Shown here piece after piece: positions 786 through 9,580 of a DNA stretch of 64,000 nt (position 1 is the stretch's first letter; the number at the start of each line of letters is the position of its first letter). The DNA is from Desulfurispirillum indicum S5 (GTDB taxonomy: Bacteria > Chrysiogenota > Chrysiogenetes > Chrysiogenales > Chrysiogenaceae). Made by a program: the position numbers and the translations under genes. A model generated the notes under the pieces. The model was not told the origin of the DNA. It saw nothing but the letters and a program-made list of their open reading frames with translations, and searched no databases. The DNA is taken from assembly GCF_000177635.2 (NCBI RefSeq), contig NC_014836.1:2402001-2466000 (forward strand), in the 5' to 3' direction.

Positions 786-1497
786 TTGATATTCTGCGGG
801 AAACCCTGATTTGCCGTGTTCCTGGTATTTTCTTCCGAAAGGCTCTGTGAGCCCCTTGAAGAGAGCGCCACAACCGCTGATGAAAAAATGGCTTGATATT
901 TCAAAAAACCGTTTTTATATTTACGACTGTACGACCACGGAAGGGGTCCTCTCGACGCAGGGAAGTTTCTTTTCTTTCATGTCCATTCCGGACGGCTTTG
1001 ACAACGATTTCTGTGCTTTCCAACGAGTGGAAATTCATGGCACAGGCGCAATACAAGGAGGTAACACCACAGGCATGCGCGTTTTGTAATTTCTCACTAT
1101 TCCATGGATTGGAATTGCGTGCCGGTGGCACGCCATCACGGAGGATACCATGTCGCAGAATTCCTGTTTTTTTTGGAGCAGTGGCTGCAGGGCCACAGGG
1201 AAAGCTCCGCAAACACGGCTGACGGCTTCTGCTGAGGTTCGGCTGACAGGAAAAGATGATTGCGGGATATCCTCCATGGCGTGGCAGATCTCCCCCTCTC
1301 TTTTCTCCTGAACTCCGTTTCTCCATAGGCAGCCCGTTGAAATTATCCGATGACCGCTGTGCACGCACATGTCCCGGCGCAAGGCGTCTGCAAGGCCAGG
1401 AGCTGACAGCTCCCTGCGCTCTGGGTTGCCGCGCCGCGATTGCCACGGCAACCGGATTTTTTCGCAAGGTGTCAGCGCAGCTATCATGGAGGATTTC
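786..1497. other. Long upstream region of the flagellin gene, no recognised gene
   Basis: No frame here resembles a known protein. Directly visible are a strong Shine-Dalgarno-like AAGGAGG at 1055-1061 followed by a 4-codon ORF (ATG CGC GTT TTG TAA), a perfect 7-bp inverted repeat with a 3-base loop at 1117-1133 (GCGTGCC/GGCACGC), and a 53-codon open frame at 1150-1311 whose ATG follows GGAGG by five bases. None has protein-level support. I found no convincing sigma-28 or sigma-54 promoter, so the flagellin transcript start is unknown. The structured elements could be a 5' leader. Confidence 0.4.
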
Positions 1498-3993
1498 ATG
1501 TCCAGCTACATCAACACCAATATTCCATCGCTGAATTCGCAGAACCATCTGCGTTTTCACTCCCAGCAGCTCTCTTCGACCATTGAAAAACTGGCTTCGG
1601 GAATGCGCATCAATCGAGGCTCCGATGACGCTTCAGGCCTGGCCATTTCCGAGAAGATGCGCGGCCAGATCCGGGGCGTGGATCGCGCCATGGCCAATGC
1701 CCAGGACGGCATGTCCCTGGTTCAGACGGCTGATGGCGCGCTCAATGAGACCGCGGGCATTCTGCAGCGCATGCGCGAGCTGGCGGTGCAGGCGGCCAAT
1801 GACACCTACACGCCCAGTGACCGCTTGCATGTGCAGCGGGAGATCGACCAGCTGCGCCAGGAGATCGACCGGGTGGCCAGTTCCACTGAGTTCAATACGA
1901 AAAAGCTCCTCAGTGGTGACGCGGCGGCCCGCTGGTCGGTCTCTGACCCCGGCAGCCTGGAAGCTATCATCCGCGACCGGGTGCAGTCGGGCACCTACCA
2001 GCTGGATGTGAGCGCCAAAGCAGGCAAGAACCAGGTGCTGCGCTCCAATATCATGACCCTGCGCGATGGCGCTTTCGCGGGGGATATTCTCACGGGGAAC
2101 GGAGTTGCCCTCACCGCCAGTACCAACTCTTCGGGCATTGCGGGTATTTACGCCGCCGAGGGAGTGCGCACCGGCTCCCTGGACGAGCGCACCTACCATA
2201 TCAATGTCACCAGCTACGATGTGGCCAATACGACCATTGAAGGCAACAGCACCATCAGCATCACGGCGGCCAATGTGGGCTTTATGGGGGTCTACCAGCA
2301 GGCGGGCTCCAACTGGGCCATCACCGCCGGGGGTGGGCAGGATGCTGCCACCGCCAACCAGCAGACCAACATTGTCAGTTTCGGCGGCATTGTGGCGGGT
2401 CGCCACGGCTACCTGGAGCTGCGCTTTGACGACGACGTGGATGTGGACAGCAATCCCGATGTCACCGGCCTGGCCAGTGTGCGCTTTATTGATGTGAAGA
2501 CCGGCGAAGCGGGTGCCTGGGCCAGCGTTGATCTGGTAGCGGGTGAGCTGAACCTGGCGGGGTCCGGTGCCCAGACCTTTGACGGCGCTGCCGTTTTTGG
2601 CGGTGGTGCCAGCCTGAGCGTCACCGGCAATGTGAAGCAGGGAGACAAGGCCCTCTTCTCCATCAACGCCGCCGTTGCAGCGGCTGATGTGGGCAGCATG
2701 TCCATGGGCGCCGGGGCCATCAAGATTGACGAGCGCTTCTCCAACGATGTGGGCACGGCTTCGGTGGTGGACTACCGGGGAGCCTACTACATTGACACCC
2801 AGAGCAGTGGCATTCAGAATATGCAGCTTACCGATGGCAACCAGCAGATCACCTACCACCTGGCCCAGCTGGAAAGCTCCACGGGCTCGGTGAGCATCGG
2901 CTCCATCACCCTGGACATGCAGGCTGACAGCACGGGCACCAAAGCGGACAGCTCCATTCTGGCGGAAGTGCGTGGCACCAGTGGCCTGGCTTCAGCTTAC
3001 ACCCGTCTGGAGGACATTGACGCCTTTTTGACTTCCGACGGCCTCAGCGTCTTTCTGGCCCCCCAGCAGCTGACCCTCTACGGCAACGATCGCCAAGTCA
3101 ATGTCACCCTGCAGGGTAGCGATACCCTCGCTGATGTGGAGCGCAAGTTCACCACGGCCATTGCCAGTGGCCTTGGCATGGGTACGGGAATCAGCAATGT
3201 GGACAGCCATACGGTGGATTTTATTGCCAAGGGTTCAGCCATTGACAGCACCCACGCGGCGGTGGAGGGAACCATGCTGTTTCGCTCCCTGATCAATGGG
3301 GCCCAGGGGCGTATCGGCCTGGCGGGAGAGGATGCGGTGATTGGTGGCTTCAACCTGGCCACCCTGCAAAACCCGGAGGAGAATCGCTACATGGTGCGGG
3401 TCAGCGAAGCCCATTCGGGCCGCGCGGTGGGGTTTGGCGAGGTGAGCGGCTCCATGCTGCGCGACCTGATTCCCGGTATGGATATCGCCGTCAAGGGCAA
3501 TGTGGGCATCGACACCAGCTTCAACGACAGCCGCGCCCGTTACGACTTCACCAGCCAGGCCACCCCATCACCATTCACCCTGCACGTGGTGGACAATTCC
3601 CCCTCTTTCCAGGTCGGCGCCAATCCGGGGCAGAGCATCAACATGCCCATCGGGCGGATGGATTCGCGGGCCCTGGAACTGGAAAACCTCATGGTGCTGG
3701 ATACGGGGCTGGCCAACGAGGCCATTGCCCGCATTGACCGGGCCATCGGCATGGTTTCGGAAGCGCGGGGGAAAATGGGGGCGGTGGCCAATCGCATGGA
3801 TCACACCATCAACAGCCTGGCCGTGGCCCACGAGAGCATGCAGGCCGCCGAAAGCCGCATCCGCGATGTGAATGTGGCCAAGGAGATCAGCAACCTGGTG
3901 CGCAGTCAGATGCTTACCGAGTCGGCGACCATCATGCTGGGCAAGGCCAATATGCTGCCCGACGGGGTCATGAGCCTGCTGCGCAACGCATGA
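1498..3993 (+). CDS. Flagellin, unusually large (831 aa)
   Basis: This is the flagellar filament subunit, exported through the flagellar type III pathway. The start is ATG 1498, five bases after GGAGG (1488-1492); an in-frame frame upstream is not needed. Residues 1-150 are the conserved D0/D1 coiled coil (starting SSYINTNIPSLNSQ, with LASGMRINRGSDDASGLAISEKMRGQIRG). The last 90 residues carry the matching C-terminal helix, ending with the usual assembly surface (AKEISNLVRSQMLTESATIMLGKANMLPDGVMSLLRNA region). Between them lie nearly 600 residues of Gly/Ala/Ser/Thr-rich surface domains, so the protein is much longer than a typical 280-500-residue flagellin. It is followed by a terminator and stands alone. 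Confidence 0.95.
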   Translation: MSSYINTNIPSLNSQNHLRFHSQQLSSTIEKLASGMRINRGSDDASGLAISEKMRGQIRGVDRAMANAQDGMSLVQTADGALNETAGILQRMRELAVQAANDTYTPSDRLHVQREIDQLRQEIDRVASSTEFNTKKLLSGDAAARWSVSDPGSLEAIIRDRVQSGTYQLDVSAKAGKNQVLRSNIMTLRDGAFAGDILTGNGVALTASTNSSGIAGIYAAEGVRTGSLDERTYHINVTSYDVANTTIEGNSTISITAANVGFMGVYQQAGSNWAITAGGGQDAATANQQTNIVSFGGIVAGRHGYLELRFDDDVDVDSNPDVTGLASVRFIDVKTGEAGAWASVDLVAGELNLAGSGAQTFDGAAVFGGGASLSVTGNVKQGDKALFSINAAVAAADVGSMSMGAGAIKIDERFSNDVGTASVVDYRGAYYIDTQSSGIQNMQLTDGNQQITYHLAQLESSTGSVSIGSITLDMQADSTGTKADSSILAEVRGTSGLASAYTRLEDIDAFLTSDGLSVFLAPQQLTLYGNDRQVNVTLQGSDTLADVERKFTTAIASGLGMGTGISNVDSHTVDFIAKGSAIDSTHAAVEGTMLFRSLINGAQGRIGLAGEDAVIGGFNLATLQNPEENRYMVRVSEAHSGRAVGFGEVSGSMLRDLIPGMDIAVKGNVGIDTSFNDSRARYDFTSQATPSPFTLHVVDNSPSFQVGANPGQSINMPIGRMDSRALELENLMVLDTGLANEAIARIDRAIGMVSEARGKMGAVANRMDHTINSLAVAHESMQAAESRIRDVNVAKEISNLVRSQMLTESATIMLGKANMLPDGVMSLLRNA

Positions 3994-4048
3994 AGAAATT
4001 GCCATATATTTTCATTTCCATCCCTTGAAAAAAAAAGCACGTATGTTT

Positions 4049-4076
4049 ACGCTGGTCTCCGGGCCAGCGTATTTTT
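4049..4076 (+). terminator. Rho-independent terminator after flagellin
   Basis: A 7-bp stem, ACGCTGG (4049-4055) with CCAGCGT (4064-4070), encloses an 8-base loop and is followed by ATTTTT. Confidence 0.8.
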
Positions 4077-4215: not shown

Positions 4216-4968
4216 ATGAAAAGGCGTACTTTTCTAAGGGCCACTGCCGCTGCTGGCATTCTTGCCGGCATGGGAGCGGGAAGCCATGTGACTACCAAGT
4301 TACTGGTGAGCACCGCTGAGGCGTCATCCAGTGGACAGAGTGGCAAGAAGCGATTGGGCATGTTCATTGATGTCAACGGCTGTGTTGGCTGCAACATGTG
4401 TACTGTTGCCTGTAACAAGGAGAACAACGTGGGGCCCAAGGTGAGCCGCACCAAGATTCTGCCTATCGAACCCGAGGGCACGTACCTCTCCATGGCCTGC
4501 CAGCACTGTGACCGCCCGCCCTGCGTCCTGGTATGCCCCATCACTGCAACCTATCGCCGCGACAAGGATGGCATAGTCATGCAGGATGACAGCAAGTGCA
4601 TGGGCTGCAAATACTGCATGACAGCCTGCCCTTACGGTGTGCGCACCTTCAACAAGTACCGTCCGTTCCCCGGCGATCAGGCGCAGTACAACCTCAACCC
4701 CGAAGTCAAGCCCCGCCCCCGTCACGTGGTGGAAAAGTGTTCCTTCTGCGACCACCGCTCCGATCGCGACCAGAAACCTGCCTGTATTGAGGCGTGCCCG
4801 GTTGGCATCCGTTACTTCGGCAACCTGGACGACCCCGACAGTGAGATCAGCCAGATGATCAGGAAGCGCAACGCCATCACCCTGTTGCCGGATCAGAAGA
4901 CGAAACCGAAAGTCTACTTCGCCTTCCCGTACAACACGCAGACACGCTTCAATGGCGACAAAAGTTAA
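4216..4968 (+). CDS. Tat-exported 16-Cys Fe-S electron transfer subunit (NrfC/PsrB/TtrB family)
   Basis: This periplasmic ferredoxin-like subunit should pass electrons between a quinol-oxidising membrane partner and a periplasmic acceptor. Start ATG 4216 is chosen because AGGAGG lies at 4200-4205 and the protein then begins with a Tat signal (KRRTFLRATAAAG, residues 2-14). Four cysteine groups follow: C56/59/62/66, C95/98/103/107, C128/131/134/138 and C175/178/190/194, enough for four [4Fe-4S] clusters. The gene is 21 bases upstream of an nrfD-type gene and co-oriented with two triheme cytochromes. No molybdopterin catalytic subunit is next to it, which is unusual for this family. The specific substrate cannot be told from sequence. 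Confidence 0.88.
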   Translation: MKRRTFLRATAAAGILAGMGAGSHVTTKLLVSTAEASSSGQSGKKRLGMFIDVNGCVGCNMCTVACNKENNVGPKVSRTKILPIEPEGTYLSMACQHCDRPPCVLVCPITATYRRDKDGIVMQDDSKCMGCKYCMTACPYGVRTFNKYRPFPGDQAQYNLNPEVKPRPRHVVEKCSFCDHRSDRDQKPACIEACPVGIRYFGNLDDPDSEISQMIRKRNAITLLPDQKTKPKVYFAFPYNTQTRFNGDKS

Positions 4969-4989
4969 GGGCAGAGGAGGCTATACACA

Positions 4990-6168
4990 ATGTCACTGAA
5001 TATTCAAGCTCAAAAGATCAACTTCGGCCCCCTCAAGCCAACCATGGGAACCTGGTTCTGGGTTCTGGTTTTCGGCGCCCTGGGCCTTATCCTCGCGTAT
5101 TCCGCCGTGTACATCTTCTTCCAGGGACAGCACACGCTGGCCACCAGTGATCCGGTGCCCTGGAACGTCTTTGTTTCCGCTTACATCTTCTTTGTGGTAA
5201 CCAGTACGGGCCTGTGCTTTATCTCCGCCTTCGGCGCGGTGTTCGGCATTGAGAAGTACGAGCTGATCGCCAAGCGGGCCGTTTTCGCCTCGCTGGTCTT
5301 CCTGGCCGTGGGCATGACCGCTATCTTCCTGGATATCGGACGCCCCTGGATGATGTACAACTACGCCATTTCCCCCAACCCTGCGTCTCCCATGTTCTGG
5401 ATGGGCGTGTTCTATGGCCTGTACTTCTTCCTGCTGCTCATGGAGCTGATCTTCATTATTCGCGGCAACCTGAAGGCCACCCAGTTCTGGGGAACCCTGG
5501 GCTTTATCTCAGCGGTCGTCGCCCACGGCTGTCTGGGCGCCCTGCTGGGCATGATCTACGCCAAGCCTCTGTGGTTCGGCCCCTACATGCCCATCTACTT
5601 TATCATGTCGGCTTTTGTATCCGGACTGGCTTCCCTGAGCATCATCCTGATCATCAGCTACAAGTCCAAGAACCGCAAGATGTCCCAGCGCATGCATGAG
5701 CTCATCCTCGACATGGGCAAGGTCTTCGGCTATGCCGTGTGCGCCCTGCTGTTCTTTGTCTTCTGGAAAAACGCTTCCGGCATCTTTGCCGACAAGCCCG
5801 AGCTGCACTGGATTCTCTACGGTGAGTACGCTGCCCGCTTCTGGATCGGCGAAGTGCTTATCGGACTGATCATCCCGATCTTCATTCTGCTGTATAAAGG
5901 AACCCGCACTCACTTCGGCATCCTGATTGCCGCGATCATGGTTATCGCAGGCCTGGTCATGGCCCGTGTCAACCTGGTTATCATCGGCCAGCTGCAGACC
6001 CCCTTCGGTCAGCCCTTGGGAACCTACAGCGCCAATATGCTGGAGATCATGTTCTTTGCCGGCCTGTTCGGCATGTTCGGACTGATCTACCTGGTTGGTG
6101 CCTACTTCTTCCAGTTCGAGGAGTTTGAGGATATGGTATCCGACGCCCTCGATGAAGCCGGACACTGA
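4990..6168 (+). CDS. NrfD/PsrC-family integral membrane quinol-interacting subunit
   Basis: A 392-residue polytopic protein with about ten hydrophobic segments, fitting the NrfD/HybB/DsrP family that exchanges electrons between the quinone pool and a periplasmic four-cluster Fe-S partner. Its partner is the gene just upstream. ATG 4990 follows GGCAGAGGAGG at a normal distance. There are no haem motifs, so electrons should pass directly to the Fe-S subunit. The highly hydrophobic helices are broken by short charged loops (for example KSKNRKMSQRMHE around residue 225). The C-terminal tail is acidic (FEEFEDMVSDALDEAGH). Confidence 0.88.
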   Translation: MSLNIQAQKINFGPLKPTMGTWFWVLVFGALGLILAYSAVYIFFQGQHTLATSDPVPWNVFVSAYIFFVVTSTGLCFISAFGAVFGIEKYELIAKRAVFASLVFLAVGMTAIFLDIGRPWMMYNYAISPNPASPMFWMGVFYGLYFFLLLMELIFIIRGNLKATQFWGTLGFISAVVAHGCLGALLGMIYAKPLWFGPYMPIYFIMSAFVSGLASLSIILIISYKSKNRKMSQRMHELILDMGKVFGYAVCALLFFVFWKNASGIFADKPELHWILYGEYAARFWIGEVLIGLIIPIFILLYKGTRTHFGILIAAIMVIAGLVMARVNLVIIGQLQTPFGQPLGTYSANMLEIMFFAGLFGMFGLIYLVGAYFFQFEEFEDMVSDALDEAGH

Positions 6169-6207
6169 GTGAAACGAAGGAAACAATTGCAGAAAGGAAG
6201 CACTCCC

Positions 6208-6669
6208 ATGATAAAGAAACTGATTCCGCTGCTGCTCTCCGTGGCGTTCATTCTGATAGCCTTCAGCAGTGCCAGCGCTATCGTCAAGTACCGCGGAGAC
6301 GGACCCTATAAAGTCAAAGCTCACCCCGATGAGTTTGTCGCCATGCAGGCATGCAGCTCGTGCCACCAGACTGGCTGGCCCCCCGAGCTGCCCCCCTATG
6401 GACCACGTATCCACGAGCTCCAGCGGCAGGGCATTGAAACTCAGGAAGCGCAAGGGCACATTCACGGCAACTTCGGATTCACCTCCTGCGTGGTCTGCCA
6501 TACCAACATCCACAACGCCGAAACCGCGTCCGAGTCCCTCACCGGTGGCTCCATCAAAAGCCTGGCGGCCTCCTGCGTCGGCTGCCACGGCGAAGGCGGA
6601 TTTGGCGGATACTGGGGTGACTGGACTTCAGAAAAGCTTCGTCCCCATACCTTTAAGCGTGCGCAGTAA
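6208..6669 (+). CDS. Small periplasmic triheme c-type cytochrome (paralogue 1)
   Basis: A 153-residue protein with an N-terminal signal peptide (about residues 1-24, ending SASA) and three CxxCH haem sites: C49-C52-H53, C94-C97-H98 and C123-C126-H127. Additional histidines (H39, H69, H84, H86, H102) can act as distal ligands. ATG 6208 is preceded by GAAAGGAAG; a longer in-frame GTG start at 6169 would add a poor leader. The C-terminal half (LTGGSIKSL, C.GCHGEGGFGGYWG.W, HTFKR) is shared with the next gene and more loosely with the gene at 9137. It is probably the electron acceptor of the Fe-S/NrfD module. I do not recognise a named family. Confidence 0.85.
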   Translation: MIKKLIPLLLSVAFILIAFSSASAIVKYRGDGPYKVKAHPDEFVAMQACSSCHQTGWPPELPPYGPRIHELQRQGIETQEAQGHIHGNFGFTSCVVCHTNIHNAETASESLTGGSIKSLAASCVGCHGEGGFGGYWGDWTSEKLRPHTFKRAQ

Positions 6670-6678
6670 GGAGAAAGC

Positions 6679-7071
6679 ATGAAAAAAGTACTCTATACCC
6701 TTATGGTGCTTTGCGTGTTTGCCGGTGTAAACGCTTACGCCGCGCCACTTGCATGCAACGCGTGCCATATCAATATCTCGGCTGACAGACTCGCTGGCGG
6801 CAAGGCCCACCCCATTCAGTACGAGGGCCTGCACAACCGCATGACAAACCAGATGCACGGGGGCTTCAAAAACTGCAGCTCCTGCCACGACGTCCAGCGG
6901 CTCGGCGAATCATCGTCCCCTGGCGCCAGCCTGCTGGGCGGCAGCATAGAGGCACTGGGTTCACGCCCCACCTGTATCGGCTGCCACAACGAAAACGGCT
7001 TTGCCGGCTACTACGGCACCTGGGCCGATTCGGAAAACCTGCGCCTGCATATCTTCAAAAGAGAGAACTGA
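6679..7071 (+). CDS. Small periplasmic triheme c-type cytochrome (paralogue 2)
   Basis: A 130-residue secreted cytochrome: signal peptide about residues 1-21 (ending AYA), then CNACH, CSSCH and CIGCH. It begins nine bases after paralogue 1, with GGAG directly upstream of ATG 6679. Its signature GGKAHPIQYEG, MTNQMHGG and LLGGSIEALG recurs in the cytochrome at 9137, and its C-terminus (GCHNENGFAGYYGTW.....LR.HIFKRE) recurs in paralogue 1, so it bridges the two. It is the last gene before a strong terminator and is probably co-transcribed with the Fe-S/NrfD genes. Confidence 0.85.
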   Translation: MKKVLYTLMVLCVFAGVNAYAAPLACNACHINISADRLAGGKAHPIQYEGLHNRMTNQMHGGFKNCSSCHDVQRLGESSSPGASLLGGSIEALGSRPTCIGCHNENGFAGYYGTWADSENLRLHIFKREN

Positions 7072-7103
7072 GCTCCCCCGCACACCGCAGAAACCGGAAC
7101 AAG

Positions 7104-7131
7104 AAAACCCCCAAGGCATTGGGGGTTTTTT
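7104..7131 (+). terminator. Rho-independent terminator after the Fe-S/NrfD/cytochrome operon
   Basis: The stem AAAACCCCCAA with TTGGGGGTTTT encloses a 4-base GGCA loop, followed by further T residues. Confidence 0.85.
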
Positions 7132-7208
7132 CTTGCCATGGGGCAAAATCCATCGCTATGCTAGGCTGAACCTGCCGACAAATTCCTCCGTGGAACCAGG
7201 AGAACACT

Positions 7209-7874
7209 GTGCAAAAACACGACAATCGTTCCGAAGCCCGAGCTTACATATACACCTGGTTTTCCGAAAAGTTCATCGCCCTTGCCGAGCAGCAGCTGCC
7301 CGATGACTGGGAAACCGAAACCCTGGCCGAAGCTTTTGATTACATCGGACTGCCACAGCTTGGGGCGCTTGCCACCGAAATGGCCTCCCAGATCAATCAG
7401 ACGCCAGCATTCAGCGAAGCGATCATCAAGGAGCACTTCCGCCTCTTCTTCGGCGGCCAGGAGGAGCCCATTCCCCTCTTTGGCTCCTGGTGGATAGACG
7501 GGGGCTTTGACGGCCCCTCGACCCAGATGGTCTTTGAGGTGTATGAACAGCATGAGCTGACACCCCACGAAGATATTCAGTGGCTGCCCGACCATATCAG
7601 CATTGAACTGGAATTTCTCTACTCCCTGGCCGTGCGTGAAGAGCAGGCCCGCGAAGCCGGTGAGATCGCGACTGCCCTGGCCAATGCCACGGCACAGTTG
7701 GAATTTCTGCGCCAGTTCGTCTCTCCCTGGGTACCTCTCGTCTGCCAGCGTGCGATTCAGCAAGCCCAGGAAGAGTTCTTTCCCCTGTTCTGCCAGCTTC
7801 TCCAGGGCATGGTTACGGAAGATCAGGTCGTCCTGAGCGATATTATCAACGATTACCAGCAAACCCTATCCTAA
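7209..7874 (+). CDS. TorD/DmsD/NarJ-type molybdoenzyme maturation chaperone
   Basis: A 221-residue all-helical cytoplasmic protein. TorD-like chaperones bind Tat-signal precursors and cofactor-free apoenzymes of the DMSO-reductase family. The family features seen are E.FRLFFGGQEEPIPLFGSWW (about residues 77-97) and the LPDHISIELEFL segment (about residues 125-140). The start is GTG 7209, with CCAGGAG just upstream. It lies after a terminator, so it heads a new unit with the ferredoxin-like gene 12 bases downstream. Its client could be the Tat-signal Fe-S protein at 4216 or a molybdoenzyme encoded elsewhere, as none is encoded here. Confidence 0.8.
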   Translation: MQKHDNRSEARAYIYTWFSEKFIALAEQQLPDDWETETLAEAFDYIGLPQLGALATEMASQINQTPAFSEAIIKEHFRLFFGGQEEPIPLFGSWWIDGGFDGPSTQMVFEVYEQHELTPHEDIQWLPDHISIELEFLYSLAVREEQAREAGEIATALANATAQLEFLRQFVSPWVPLVCQRAIQQAQEEFFPLFCQLLQGMVTEDQVVLSDIINDYQQTLS

Positions 7875-7886
7875 CCGCCAGCAATC

Positions 7887-9020
7887 ATGAAAACACCTGC
7901 CATCACTGACGACCGGCTGCTCTTTTTCCACCAGCTGTGCCTCAATCACAAGCTGCCACACCCTGTCTGCTCAGGATGCGTGGATGCCTGCCCCTTTGGC
8001 GCCCTGCAGCAACAGGGATCAAGCATTGAAATCGACCACGACCGGTGCACCCTCTGCGGCGCCTGTGTGGCCGCGTGCCCCGTACTGGCAGTCAATCTGC
8101 GCCAGCACCCGTATGCCGGTATCTCTGGACACATCACAGAAAAACCATACTTTGCCCTGGGCTGTTTCCGGCAAAGCGCCGGGCAGGAGCATATCCGCAT
8201 TCCCTGCGCGCGGGTTGTGGATATTGCCCTGCTGGGCCACAGGGCCATCGAACAGCCTGATGAATCCGCTTCAATGCAGATTCTGACGGCTGACTGTACG
8301 CGCTGCCCGTGTAATGGCGATGGCGGACTGCCTTCGCATATCTCTTCCCTGCAGGAGGAGTCGGCTTTCTGGCGTATCCCCGTTGATATTGAGCTCCAGC
8401 AGGTCAGCAGCAAAGACCGAACAGGAAAGGGCGCTCCCCCTTCTTCAGGCAGCGGCCTCAGCAGGCGTTCATTGCTGCGCTTCTTCCGAAGCGGCGAACC
8501 TCATATTGCGTCATCAGCTCCTGCGAACAGTGCGCCAGACACATGTGAAAGCAGCTGCCACAAGCGGCAACTGCTGCTTGCGTACCTCTCCCGCACCCCT
8601 TTCCCTCTCTCCTCAGCCACGGTGCTGCCAGGACACTCCTTTGGCCAGATACACATGGAAAGGGGTGGTGAGTGCACCCTGTGCGAAGTGTGCACCCGCC
8701 TCTGCCCGACCAGGGCCCTGTACTGGCTGGACTCAGAAAATCAGCGTTCGCTGCGCTTTGACCCCACGCTGTGTATCGCCTGCAAGCGTTGCACCCTGTG
8801 CCCCGGCAAACTGCTCACCCTGCAGTCCATCACCTGTGGGGAGTTTTTCAGCGGAACCCGCGATCTGTGCCAGTTTGCCACAGCAGCCTGTGAGAGCTGC
8901 GACGATCTGTTTGTGAAAAATCCAGAAACAAACGGACTACTCTGCCCGGTTTGTCAGACCATGGCAAAGAACCAGCAACGCCTTCTTGCGGACCTGAAAA
9001 ATTGTTCAGACACCCAATGA
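7887..9020 (+). CDS. Ferredoxin-like protein with four predicted [4Fe-4S] clusters
   Basis: A 377-residue protein without a signal peptide. It has two N-terminal cluster motifs (CSGCVDACPFG about residues 28-38, CTLCGACVAACP about 54-65). A middle region has scattered cysteines (CTRCPC) and a linker with an internal SRRSLLRFF stretch. Two more motifs follow (CTLCEVCTRLCP and CIACKRCTLCPG), then a C-terminal CESCDDLF...CPVC pair resembling a zinc ribbon. It follows the TorD-like gene with no clear Shine-Dalgarno, suggesting translational coupling. It is probably a cytoplasmic electron-transfer or assembly partner of the same respiratory system. No closer family is recognised. Confidence 0.75.
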   Translation: MKTPAITDDRLLFFHQLCLNHKLPHPVCSGCVDACPFGALQQQGSSIEIDHDRCTLCGACVAACPVLAVNLRQHPYAGISGHITEKPYFALGCFRQSAGQEHIRIPCARVVDIALLGHRAIEQPDESASMQILTADCTRCPCNGDGGLPSHISSLQEESAFWRIPVDIELQQVSSKDRTGKGAPPSSGSGLSRRSLLRFFRSGEPHIASSAPANSAPDTCESSCHKRQLLLAYLSRTPFPLSSATVLPGHSFGQIHMERGGECTLCEVCTRLCPTRALYWLDSENQRSLRFDPTLCIACKRCTLCPGKLLTLQSITCGEFFSGTRDLCQFATAACESCDDLFVKNPETNGLLCPVCQTMAKNQQRLLADLKNCSDTQ

Positions 9021-9136
9021 AGCCTCCCCATTGACCTTAGGGCCTGTAAACTCCACTTCACAATAAAATGGGGTTTTACAACCTCTGCGTTTTATACTAT
9101 TTTTTCAGGTTAGAATTCTTACTTAAGGAGATCATT

Positions 9137-9517
9137 ATGAAGAAAACTCTGCTTTTGCTCATGTCAGTGTTTGTGCTTGCTCTCGTAAGCGCCTACGCCC
9201 AGACACCCGCCTGTAACGCCTGCCACGCCGGACTGCCTGAAGCCGCTCTGCAGGGTGGAAAAGCCCACCCCGTCCAGTTTGAAGGGGTAAACCAGAAGAT
9301 GACCAACCCCATGCACATGGGCCTGAAGTCCTGTAACAACTGCCATGACGCTGGCCAGCTCAAAGACGCGACAACCGCCGCTGCCAGCCTCAAGGGTGGA
9401 AGCGTAGCGGCTCTCGGCGCCATGCCTACCTGTGCCGGCTGCCACTCCGGAGCTCCTGCAGCCAAGCCTGCTGACTGGAACATGGAACGCGTGAAGCTGC
9501 ACACTTTCTCCAAGTAA
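9137..9517 (+). CDS. Small periplasmic triheme c-type cytochrome (paralogue 3)
   Basis: A 126-residue secreted cytochrome with three CxxCH motifs (CNACH, CNNCH, CAGCH). The signal peptide covers about residues 1-21 (ending AYA). ATG 9137 follows AAGGAG (9125-9130); an in-frame ATG at 9068 would only add a non-signal leader. It is strongly similar to the cytochrome at 6679 (GGKAHPVQFEGVNQKMTNPMH.G, LKGGSVAALG..PTC.GCH, LHTF) but lacks the GFAGYYG segment. It has its own upstream gap of about 110 bases and its own terminator, so it may be expressed separately from the other two. Confidence 0.85.
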   Translation: MKKTLLLLMSVFVLALVSAYAQTPACNACHAGLPEAALQGGKAHPVQFEGVNQKMTNPMHMGLKSCNNCHDAGQLKDATTAAASLKGGSVAALGAMPTCAGCHSGAPAAKPADWNMERVKLHTFSK

Positions 9518-9544: not shown

Positions 9545-9580
9545 AAAGGCCCCCGCTGATTTGCAGCGGGGGCCTTTCTA
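9545..9580 (+). terminator. Rho-independent terminator after triheme cytochrome 3
   Basis: A 14-bp perfect stem, AAAGGCCCCCGCTG (9545-9558) with CAGCGGGGGCCTTT (9564-9577), encloses a 5-base loop. Confidence 0.85.

What the first reader, a model, noticed from the sequence alone, without database searches (positions are those of the whole stretch)
4216..9517. Quinol/Fe-S/triheme-cytochrome module with a TorD chaperone but no molybdoenzyme
A Tat-signal 16-Cys Fe-S protein and an NrfD-type membrane subunit normally pair with a molybdopterin catalytic subunit. Here the catalytic subunit is absent and three related triheme cytochromes take its place. A TorD-like chaperone and a second four-cluster Fe-S protein follow. 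This could be an unrecognised menaquinol:cytochrome c oxidoreductase, with periplasmic triheme cytochromes as electron carriers.
Basis: partly seen in the sequence, partly recalled or inferred. Interest (0 to 1): 0.65.

Follow-up and report, generated by a model that had tools for sequence, protein, structure and literature searches.

The report
Quinol-to-cytochrome module plus separate chaperone operon
The stretch is really two neighbouring gene sets in a selenium-breathing bacterium: a membrane complex that probably passes electrons from the membrane to small periplasmic cytochromes, and a separate helper operon for assembling a molybdenum enzyme encoded elsewhere; it is an uncommon variant of a known kind of respiratory complex.

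Summary
In detail: Tat-signal 16-Cys Fe-S protein, NrfD, three triheme cytochromes, TorD and a polyferredoxin at 4216-9517, with no molybdoenzyme gene in the window (genome: Desulfurispirillum indicum S5). The single-module reading does not hold. A strong terminator (~7100-7135) splits the run into operon A (FeS1-nrfD-tri1-tri2) and operon B (torD-FeS2-tri3). In a sister genus the two lie on different contigs, each without a molybdoenzyme. Operon A is best read as a stand-alone NrfD-type menaquinol:cytochrome c oxidoreductase, the kind represented by Cbc4 and SirCD; each triheme has the histidines for bis-His ligation of all its hemes. Operon B is best read as a maturation pair for a molybdoenzyme encoded elsewhere: 9 of 10 such pairs in related genomes sit beside a molybdoenzyme gene, the tenth is at a contig edge, and by elimination the client is a TtrA-like enzyme. 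An unexpected complement: the same two genomes carry a Psr/Srr-like molybdoenzyme-plus-FeS locus that lacks its NrfD subunit, so operon A may feed it through the cytochromes. New variant of a known kind; moderate interest.

The parts
4048..4071 (+). intrinsic terminator upstream of operon A (after the flagellin-like gene)
   Evidence: 10-bp stem, -18.4 kcal/mol, z -4.7
4216..4968 (+). FeS1: Tat-exported four-[4Fe-4S] electron-transfer subunit (NrfC/DsrO/TtrB-like)
   Evidence: 16 Cys, RR motif, own signal peptide; 74% identical to the G002 copy
4990..6168 (+). NrfD/PsrC-type membrane subunit with presumed quinone-site residues D115 and S133 (spacing 18, as in TtrC, DsrP, QrcD and W. succinogenes PsrC)
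   Evidence: 67% identical to G002
6208..6669 (+). tri1: periplasmic triheme cytochrome c
   Evidence: three CxxCH plus three further invariant His
6679..7071 (+). tri2: periplasmic triheme cytochrome c
7100..7135 (+). intrinsic terminator that ends operon A
   Evidence: CAAGAAAACCCCCAAGGCATTGGGGGTTTTTTCTTG, -21.5 kcal/mol, z -3.2; G002 has an equivalent hairpin right after its tri2
7133..7162 (+). promoter-like site in front of operon B (9 of 12 matches, weak evidence)
7209..7874 (+). TorD/DmsD/NarJ-family chaperone
7887..9020 (+). FeS2: polyferredoxin without evident signal peptide, partner of TorD; NapF-like maturation role inferred
9137..9517 (+). tri3: periplasmic triheme cytochrome c of operon B
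   Evidence: 58% identical to the triheme after TorD-FeS2 in G002
9545..9577 (+). intrinsic terminator after tri3
   Evidence: hairpin AAAGGCCCCCGCTG...CAGCGGGGGCCTTT

Best explanation
Two operons sit side by side. Operon A (FeS1-nrfD-tri1-tri2) encodes a stand-alone NrfD-type menaquinol:cytochrome c oxidoreductase. Menaquinol is oxidised at the periplasmic-side site of NrfD, electrons pass through the four [4Fe-4S] clusters of the Tat-exported FeS1 to tri1, and on to small bis-His triheme carriers (tri2, tri3), which deliver them to periplasmic reductases that have no quinol-oxidising subunit of their own. The leading candidate acceptor is the Psr/Phs/Srr-like molybdoenzyme plus FeS pair encoded about 0.51 Mb away. 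Operon B (torD-FeS2-tri3) is a cytoplasmic maturation pair (chaperone plus NapF-like polyferredoxin) for a Tat molybdoenzyme encoded elsewhere, most likely the TtrA-like enzyme, followed by a third triheme carrier. Shown here: gene content, terminators, conservation and separability in the sister genus, complementary gene inventories. Inferred: direction of electron flow, acceptor, chaperone client.
For: Operon A recurs intact, without a molybdoenzyme and apart from TorD, in G002. Terminators follow tri2 in both genomes. The quinone-site Asp/Glu and Ser are present. FeS1 has its own Tat signal in both genomes, unlike the 182-206 aa signal-less FeS subunits of Psr-type molybdoenzyme-linked relatives, so it can be exported without a molybdoenzyme. 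The six trihemes share exactly six invariant His, three in CxxCH and three others, enough for bis-His ligation of every heme. TorD plus polyferredoxin pairs lie beside molybdoenzyme genes in 9 of 10 Deferribacterota cases, the tenth being at a contig edge. D. indicum has four PF02613 chaperones; three have a local client, leaving the window's one, and the TtrA-like enzyme is the candidate client without one; G002 has the same leftover pair and G001 lacks both. Only two NrfD genes exist in the genome; the other belongs to the Ttr locus.
Against: No expression, biochemical or genetic data were available. The co-occurrence argument rests on three genomes. Direction could be reversed (cytochrome c to menaquinone, as in Qrc). 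The promoter-like site before torD is close to chance frequency. TorD homologues can serve more than one enzyme. D. indicum also has a Rieske/cytochrome b/cytochrome c set next to the Psr/Srr-like locus that could feed the same carriers.
Confidence: 0.7

Rival explanations
1. Operon A is the displaced membrane half of the Psr/Srr-like molybdoenzyme (MO1): a split complex in which FeS1-NrfD and the trihemes serve this one enzyme only.
For: MO1 locus (p110-chaperone-MO1-FeS-rhodanese-rhodanese) lacks NrfD in both D. indicum and G002, while its relatives in Deferribacterota are MO-FeS-NrfD operons. MO1 and the window NrfD are both present in G000 and G002 and both absent from G001. The window NrfD branches on the Psr/Arr/Arx side of the tree (96/96).
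Against: MO1 keeps its own PsrB-like FeS subunit, and FeS1 is not in the PsrB clade. The window NrfD is a deep branch, not nested in the PsrC clade. ArrAB also has no membrane subunit gene next to it in D. indicum, so MO1 need not be the only client.
Confidence: 0.3
2. Operon A belongs to nitrite reduction: FeS1-NrfD as NrfCD, a triheme as NrfB equivalent, feeding the adjacent NrfA.
For: nrfHA lies 132 bp away, convergent.
Against: NrfA has an NrfH quinol dehydrogenase gene next to it. All three Chrysiogenota genomes have NrfA but G001 lacks operon A; in G002 NrfA is on contig C14 and operon A on C3. NrfC and NrfD models are far below cut-off (152.6 against 377.6 and 35.1 against 347.6 bits).
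Confidence: 0.08
3. Operon A works in reverse, as a Qrc/Nhc-like cytochrome c:menaquinone reductase.
For: NrfD-FeS pairs with cytochromes work in that direction in QrcABCD and NhcABCD (PMC8076601).
Against: No QrcB-type gene in the operon; QrcC and QrcD models far below cut-off (162 against 400 and 27 against 570 bits). The terminal acceptors reported for the organism are all reduced in respiration (PMC3368425). Periplasmic hydrogenases or formate dehydrogenases, the usual donors, were not looked for.
Confidence: 0.1
4. Operon A is a DsrJOP-like (DsrMKJOP) electron-transfer set.
For: Same three protein types (triheme, Tat FeS, NrfD); FeS1 scores 196.4 bits on the DsrO model, cut-off 200.
Against: The DsrO model also passes on the organism's TtrB (216.6 bits), so it is not specific. 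NrfD gives 37 bits on DsrP (cut-off 350) and branches away from DsrP. Trihemes do not match DsrJ (best E 0.006). No DsrMK next to it.
Confidence: 0.03

Closest known systems
Cbc4 (CbcSTU) of Geobacter sulfurreducens, a proposed menaquinol:ferricytochrome c oxidoreductase (PMC11434368)
   Same: Three-part plan: c-type cytochrome, FeS protein and membrane quinol subunit, no molybdoenzyme, feeding a periplasmic cytochrome network
   Different: Two trihemes of their own family here; CbcSTU itself was not compared by sequence; the cytochrome-linked FeS-NrfD sets found in the survey (L211, L212, L217) are on another branch
SirCD of Shewanella oneidensis (PMC11434368, PMC8524038)
   Same: FeS plus NrfD quinol dehydrogenase that can feed several periplasmic pathways
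   Different: Dedicated triheme genes in the operon here; SirCD was not compared by sequence
PsrABC / SrrABC / ArrABC complex iron-sulfur molybdoenzymes
   Same: NrfD is most similar to theirs (about 28-40% identity) and branches beside them
   Different: No catalytic subunit in the operon; FeS1 is Tat-exported on its own; cytochromes added
DsrMKJOP
   Same: Triheme, FeS and NrfD gene types together; FeS1 37-41% identical to the DsrO-type proteins of L208-L210
   Different: NrfD and trihemes are not of the Dsr families; DsrMK absent next door
TorD/FdhM chaperones and NapF-type maturation factors (PMC10609526)
   Same: TorD-family chaperone next to a multi-cluster ferredoxin without signal peptide
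   Different: Client enzyme not in the same operon; a triheme gene follows instead

Membership tests
NrfD-type quinol:cytochrome c oxidoreductase (Cbc4/SirCD kind) | NrfD membrane subunit with quinone-site acidic/His residue in TMH2 and Ser at the pocket entry | tested here: met
   PF03916 E 6e-37; D115 and S133, spacing 18; E and S in G002. By motif only, no structure
NrfD-type quinol:cytochrome c oxidoreductase (Cbc4/SirCD kind) | exported four-cluster FeS partner encoded next to it | tested here: met
   RR motif, 16 Cys, 21-bp gap
NrfD-type quinol:cytochrome c oxidoreductase (Cbc4/SirCD kind) | c-type cytochrome in the operon, no molybdoenzyme | tested here: met
   tri1, tri2 in operon A; no PF00384 in the window; same in G002
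NrfD-type quinol:cytochrome c oxidoreductase (Cbc4/SirCD kind) | menaquinol-dependent cytochrome reduction | not testable with these tools
   needs biochemistry
NrfD-type quinol:cytochrome c oxidoreductase (Cbc4/SirCD kind) | sequence kinship with CbcTU or SirCD themselves | not tested
   no identified CbcSTU or SirCD sequence was fetched
PsrABC/SrrABC molybdoenzyme complex | molybdopterin catalytic subunit in the operon | tested here: not met
PsrABC/SrrABC molybdoenzyme complex | FeS subunit of the PsrB clade without own signal | tested here: not met
   FeS1 outside the PsrB clade, own Tat signal
NrfABCD nitrite reductase | NrfC and NrfD equivalog scores | tested here: not met
   152.6 against 377.6 and 35.1 against 347.6 bits
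DsrMKJOP | DsrP and DsrJ homology | tested here: not met
   DsrP 37 bits against 350; no DsrJ match better than E 0.006
QrcABCD | QrcC and QrcD equivalog scores | tested here: not met
   162.4 against 400 and 26.9 against 570 bits
TorD/NarJ chaperone family | PF02613 domain | tested here: met
   82 bits, cut-off 22.2
TorD/NarJ chaperone family | client molybdoenzyme encoded in the same operon (usual, not obligatory) | tested here: not met
   none in operon B in either genome

The most novel reading that the evidence does not exclude
A complex iron-sulfur molybdoenzyme has been split into two separately encoded halves joined by diffusible carriers: a Psr/Srr-like catalytic plus FeS pair without a membrane subunit, and a FeS-NrfD quinol dehydrogenase that sends electrons to it through bis-His triheme cytochromes, used for selenite or sulfur respiration in Chrysiogenota.
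Probability: 0.3. Interest if true: 0.6.

Novelty: new variant of a known kind. Interest (0 to 1): 0.38.

Why it matters
How D. indicum passes quinol electrons to its periplasmic selenium, sulfur and arsenic reductases is not settled; PMC4245776 states that its terminal reductases for selenate and selenite have not been identified. Operon A is a concrete candidate for a shared quinol exit, and the inventories of three genomes give testable pairings: operon A with the Psr/Srr-like enzyme that lacks a membrane subunit, and the orphan TorD with the TtrA-like enzyme. It also shows how adjacency can make two operons look like one complex when relatives keep them apart.

Tried and rejected
The genome-contig scan with FeS2 gave nothing. 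The NrfD scan used only two peptide patterns and gave two distant molybdoenzyme-linked loci, so absence from that scan means little. Viral contigs gave nothing; plasmids gave two distant PsrC-type hits; the tri1 homologue gave none. phmmer of NrfD against the PDB gave no hit. A phylum search around G056 covered four genomes only and was empty. My first reading of MO1 as an orphan without FeS and chaperone genes was wrong: the simple gene caller had been misled by antisense ORFs, corrected. A Dsr reading from the DsrO score was rejected because the same model passes on TtrB. No structure prediction was run.
Full report
What was checked. The window is G000 C1:2402001-2466000 of a single 2,928,377-bp contig, the size published for Desulfurispirillum indicum S5, a bacterium that respires selenate, selenite, arsenate, nitrate and nitrite (PMC3368425). 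None of the six PF00384 matches in the genome is in the window.

One run, two operons. The gap between tri2 (ends 7071) and torD (starts 7209) holds the hairpin CAAGAAAACCCCCAAGGCATTGGGGGTTTTTTCTTG (about 7100-7135; -21.5 kcal/mol, z -3.2), followed by a weak promoter-like site. A terminator precedes FeS1 (4048-4071) and another follows tri3 (about 9545-9577). The gaps inside operon A are 21, 39 and 9 bp.

The sister genus separates the two. Of the two other genomes of the family, G002 has FeS1-NrfD-tri1-tri2 on contig C3 (72, 67, 65 and 67% identity), again with a terminator hairpin after tri2 and no molybdoenzyme nearby, and TorD-FeS2-tri3 on contig C7. G001 has no NrfD of this type, and its best TorD match is the chaperone of its Arr operon. 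PMC3368425 lists arsenate, nitrate and nitrite for the former and sulfur or arsenate for the latter.

What operon A is. NrfD keeps the residues that the review of the family (PMC8076601) ties to quinone binding: an acidic residue in TMH2 (D115; Glu in G002) and a Ser 18 positions on (S133). FeS1 has 16 Cys and its own Tat signal, whereas the FeS subunits of Psr-type molybdoenzyme-linked relatives are 182-206 aa without a signal. The six trihemes of the two genomes share exactly six invariant His, three in CxxCH and three more, enough for bis-His ligation of each heme, which suits carriers rather than catalysts. In the NrfD tree the window/G002 pair is a deep branch on the Psr/Arr/Arx side (96/96), away from DsrP and from the cytochrome-linked sets L211, L212 and L217. 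FeS1 is a separate deep lineage. Of 26 tested loci that carry more distant NrfD relatives, counting the sets without L069 and L142, 24 or 25 have a molybdoenzyme gene beside NrfD, the clear exception being L143. A sample of 385 genomes returned no further FeS1-NrfD-triheme set of this kind among the loci read; it returned DsrJOP sets, FeS-NrfD plus decaheme sets, and C_GCAxxG-FeS-NrfD sets. The plan matches published FeS-NrfD quinol dehydrogenases that feed c-type cytochromes, Cbc4 and SirCD (PMC11434368, PMC8524038). Membership by sequence in those two was not tested.

What operon B is. The TorD-family gene is followed directly by a polyferredoxin without an evident signal peptide. In Deferribacterota, ten adjacent TorD-polyferredoxin pairs were examined; nine have a molybdoenzyme catalytic gene within a few kb and the tenth (L143) lies at a contig edge. 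NapF, a cytoplasmic four-cluster protein, is reported to act in NapA maturation, and the TorD homologue FdhM belongs to a formate dehydrogenase operon (PMC10609526). D. indicum has four PF02613 chaperones: those of Arr, Nar and MO1, and the window's. Its molybdoenzymes are NapA, NarG, ArrA, MO1 and a TtrA-like protein (1051 bits on the TtrA model), besides NuoG. Leaving NapA aside, which by general knowledge uses a different type of chaperone (NapD), only the TtrA-like one lacks a chaperone gene nearby. G002 has the same leftover pair; G001 has neither. By elimination the window's TorD most likely serves the TtrA-like enzyme.

An unexpected complement. MO1 (C1:2914396-2916729; best PDB match 2vpw, the Thermus polysulfide/thiosulfate reductase, 395 bits; best NCBIfam model PhsA, below its cut-off) sits in p110-chaperone-MO1-FeS-rhodanese-rhodanese and has no NrfD gene next to it, in D. 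indicum and in G002 alike. Its relatives in Deferribacterota are MO-FeS-NrfD operons. D. indicum has only two NrfD genes, the window's and that of the Ttr locus. MO1 and operon A are present together in G000 and G002 and absent together from G001. This makes operon A a natural electron source for MO1, but with three genomes it is a correlation. FeS1 is not the missing PsrB, since MO1 has its own, and a Rieske/cytochrome b/cytochrome c set next to MO1 in D. indicum is an alternative source. The substrate of MO1 is unknown; the Psr/Phs/Srr lineage includes polysulfide, thiosulfate and selenite reductases (PMC10100899).

Nitrite reductase. nrfHA lies next door in convergent orientation, but NrfA is in all three genomes, including G001 without operon A, and is on another contig in G002. 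A shared function is unlikely.

Verdict. Observation confirmed; interpretation partly supported. The FeS1-NrfD-triheme unit is plausibly a menaquinol:cytochrome c oxidoreductase of a known kind, while TorD and FeS2 belong to a neighbouring maturation operon.

Noticed in passing
window 6679-7071 and L069:8045-8428: tri2 of D. indicum has a C-terminus like tri1 (CHNENGFAGYYGTW...), while its G002 counterpart has one like tri3 (CHSGAVASKPEDWDMERVKLHTFSK): a mosaic that suggests recombination among the triheme genes.
   Followed up: no
L143:8299-10972, L218:6109-8846, L219:6335-9034: Three Deferribacterota loci carry a Tat protein (C_GCAxxG domain in L143), a Tat FeS protein and an NrfD nested in the Psr clade, without a molybdoenzyme gene: an apparently separate case of a Psr-type NrfD whose catalytic subunit was replaced.
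   Followed up: partly
L076:797-6022 (G000 C1 about 2906796-2912021): A 12-heme and a 10-heme cytochrome followed by Rieske, cytochrome b and a multiheme c-type gene, next to the Psr/Srr-like MO1 locus.
   Followed up: partly
L076:11127-11459 and L139:11246-11590: Small exported protein (110-114 aa, no Pfam match) at the head of the MO1 operon in both genomes, 44% identical, function unknown.
   Followed up: partly
L069:4355-5359, L073:12039-13034, L140:8508-9515: A second polyferredoxin type (44-47% identical) sits after ArrAB-TorD in D. indicum, in front of FeS1 in G002, and apart from both in G001: it moves between loci.
   Followed up: no
window 1369-3993: Unusually long (874 aa ORF) flagellin-like protein upstream of operon A, followed by a strong terminator.
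   Followed up: no
L142:1669-6354: In G044 a hydrogenase small-subunit-like Tat protein, FeS and NrfD lie next to a polyferredoxin of the FeS2 family.
   Followed up: no
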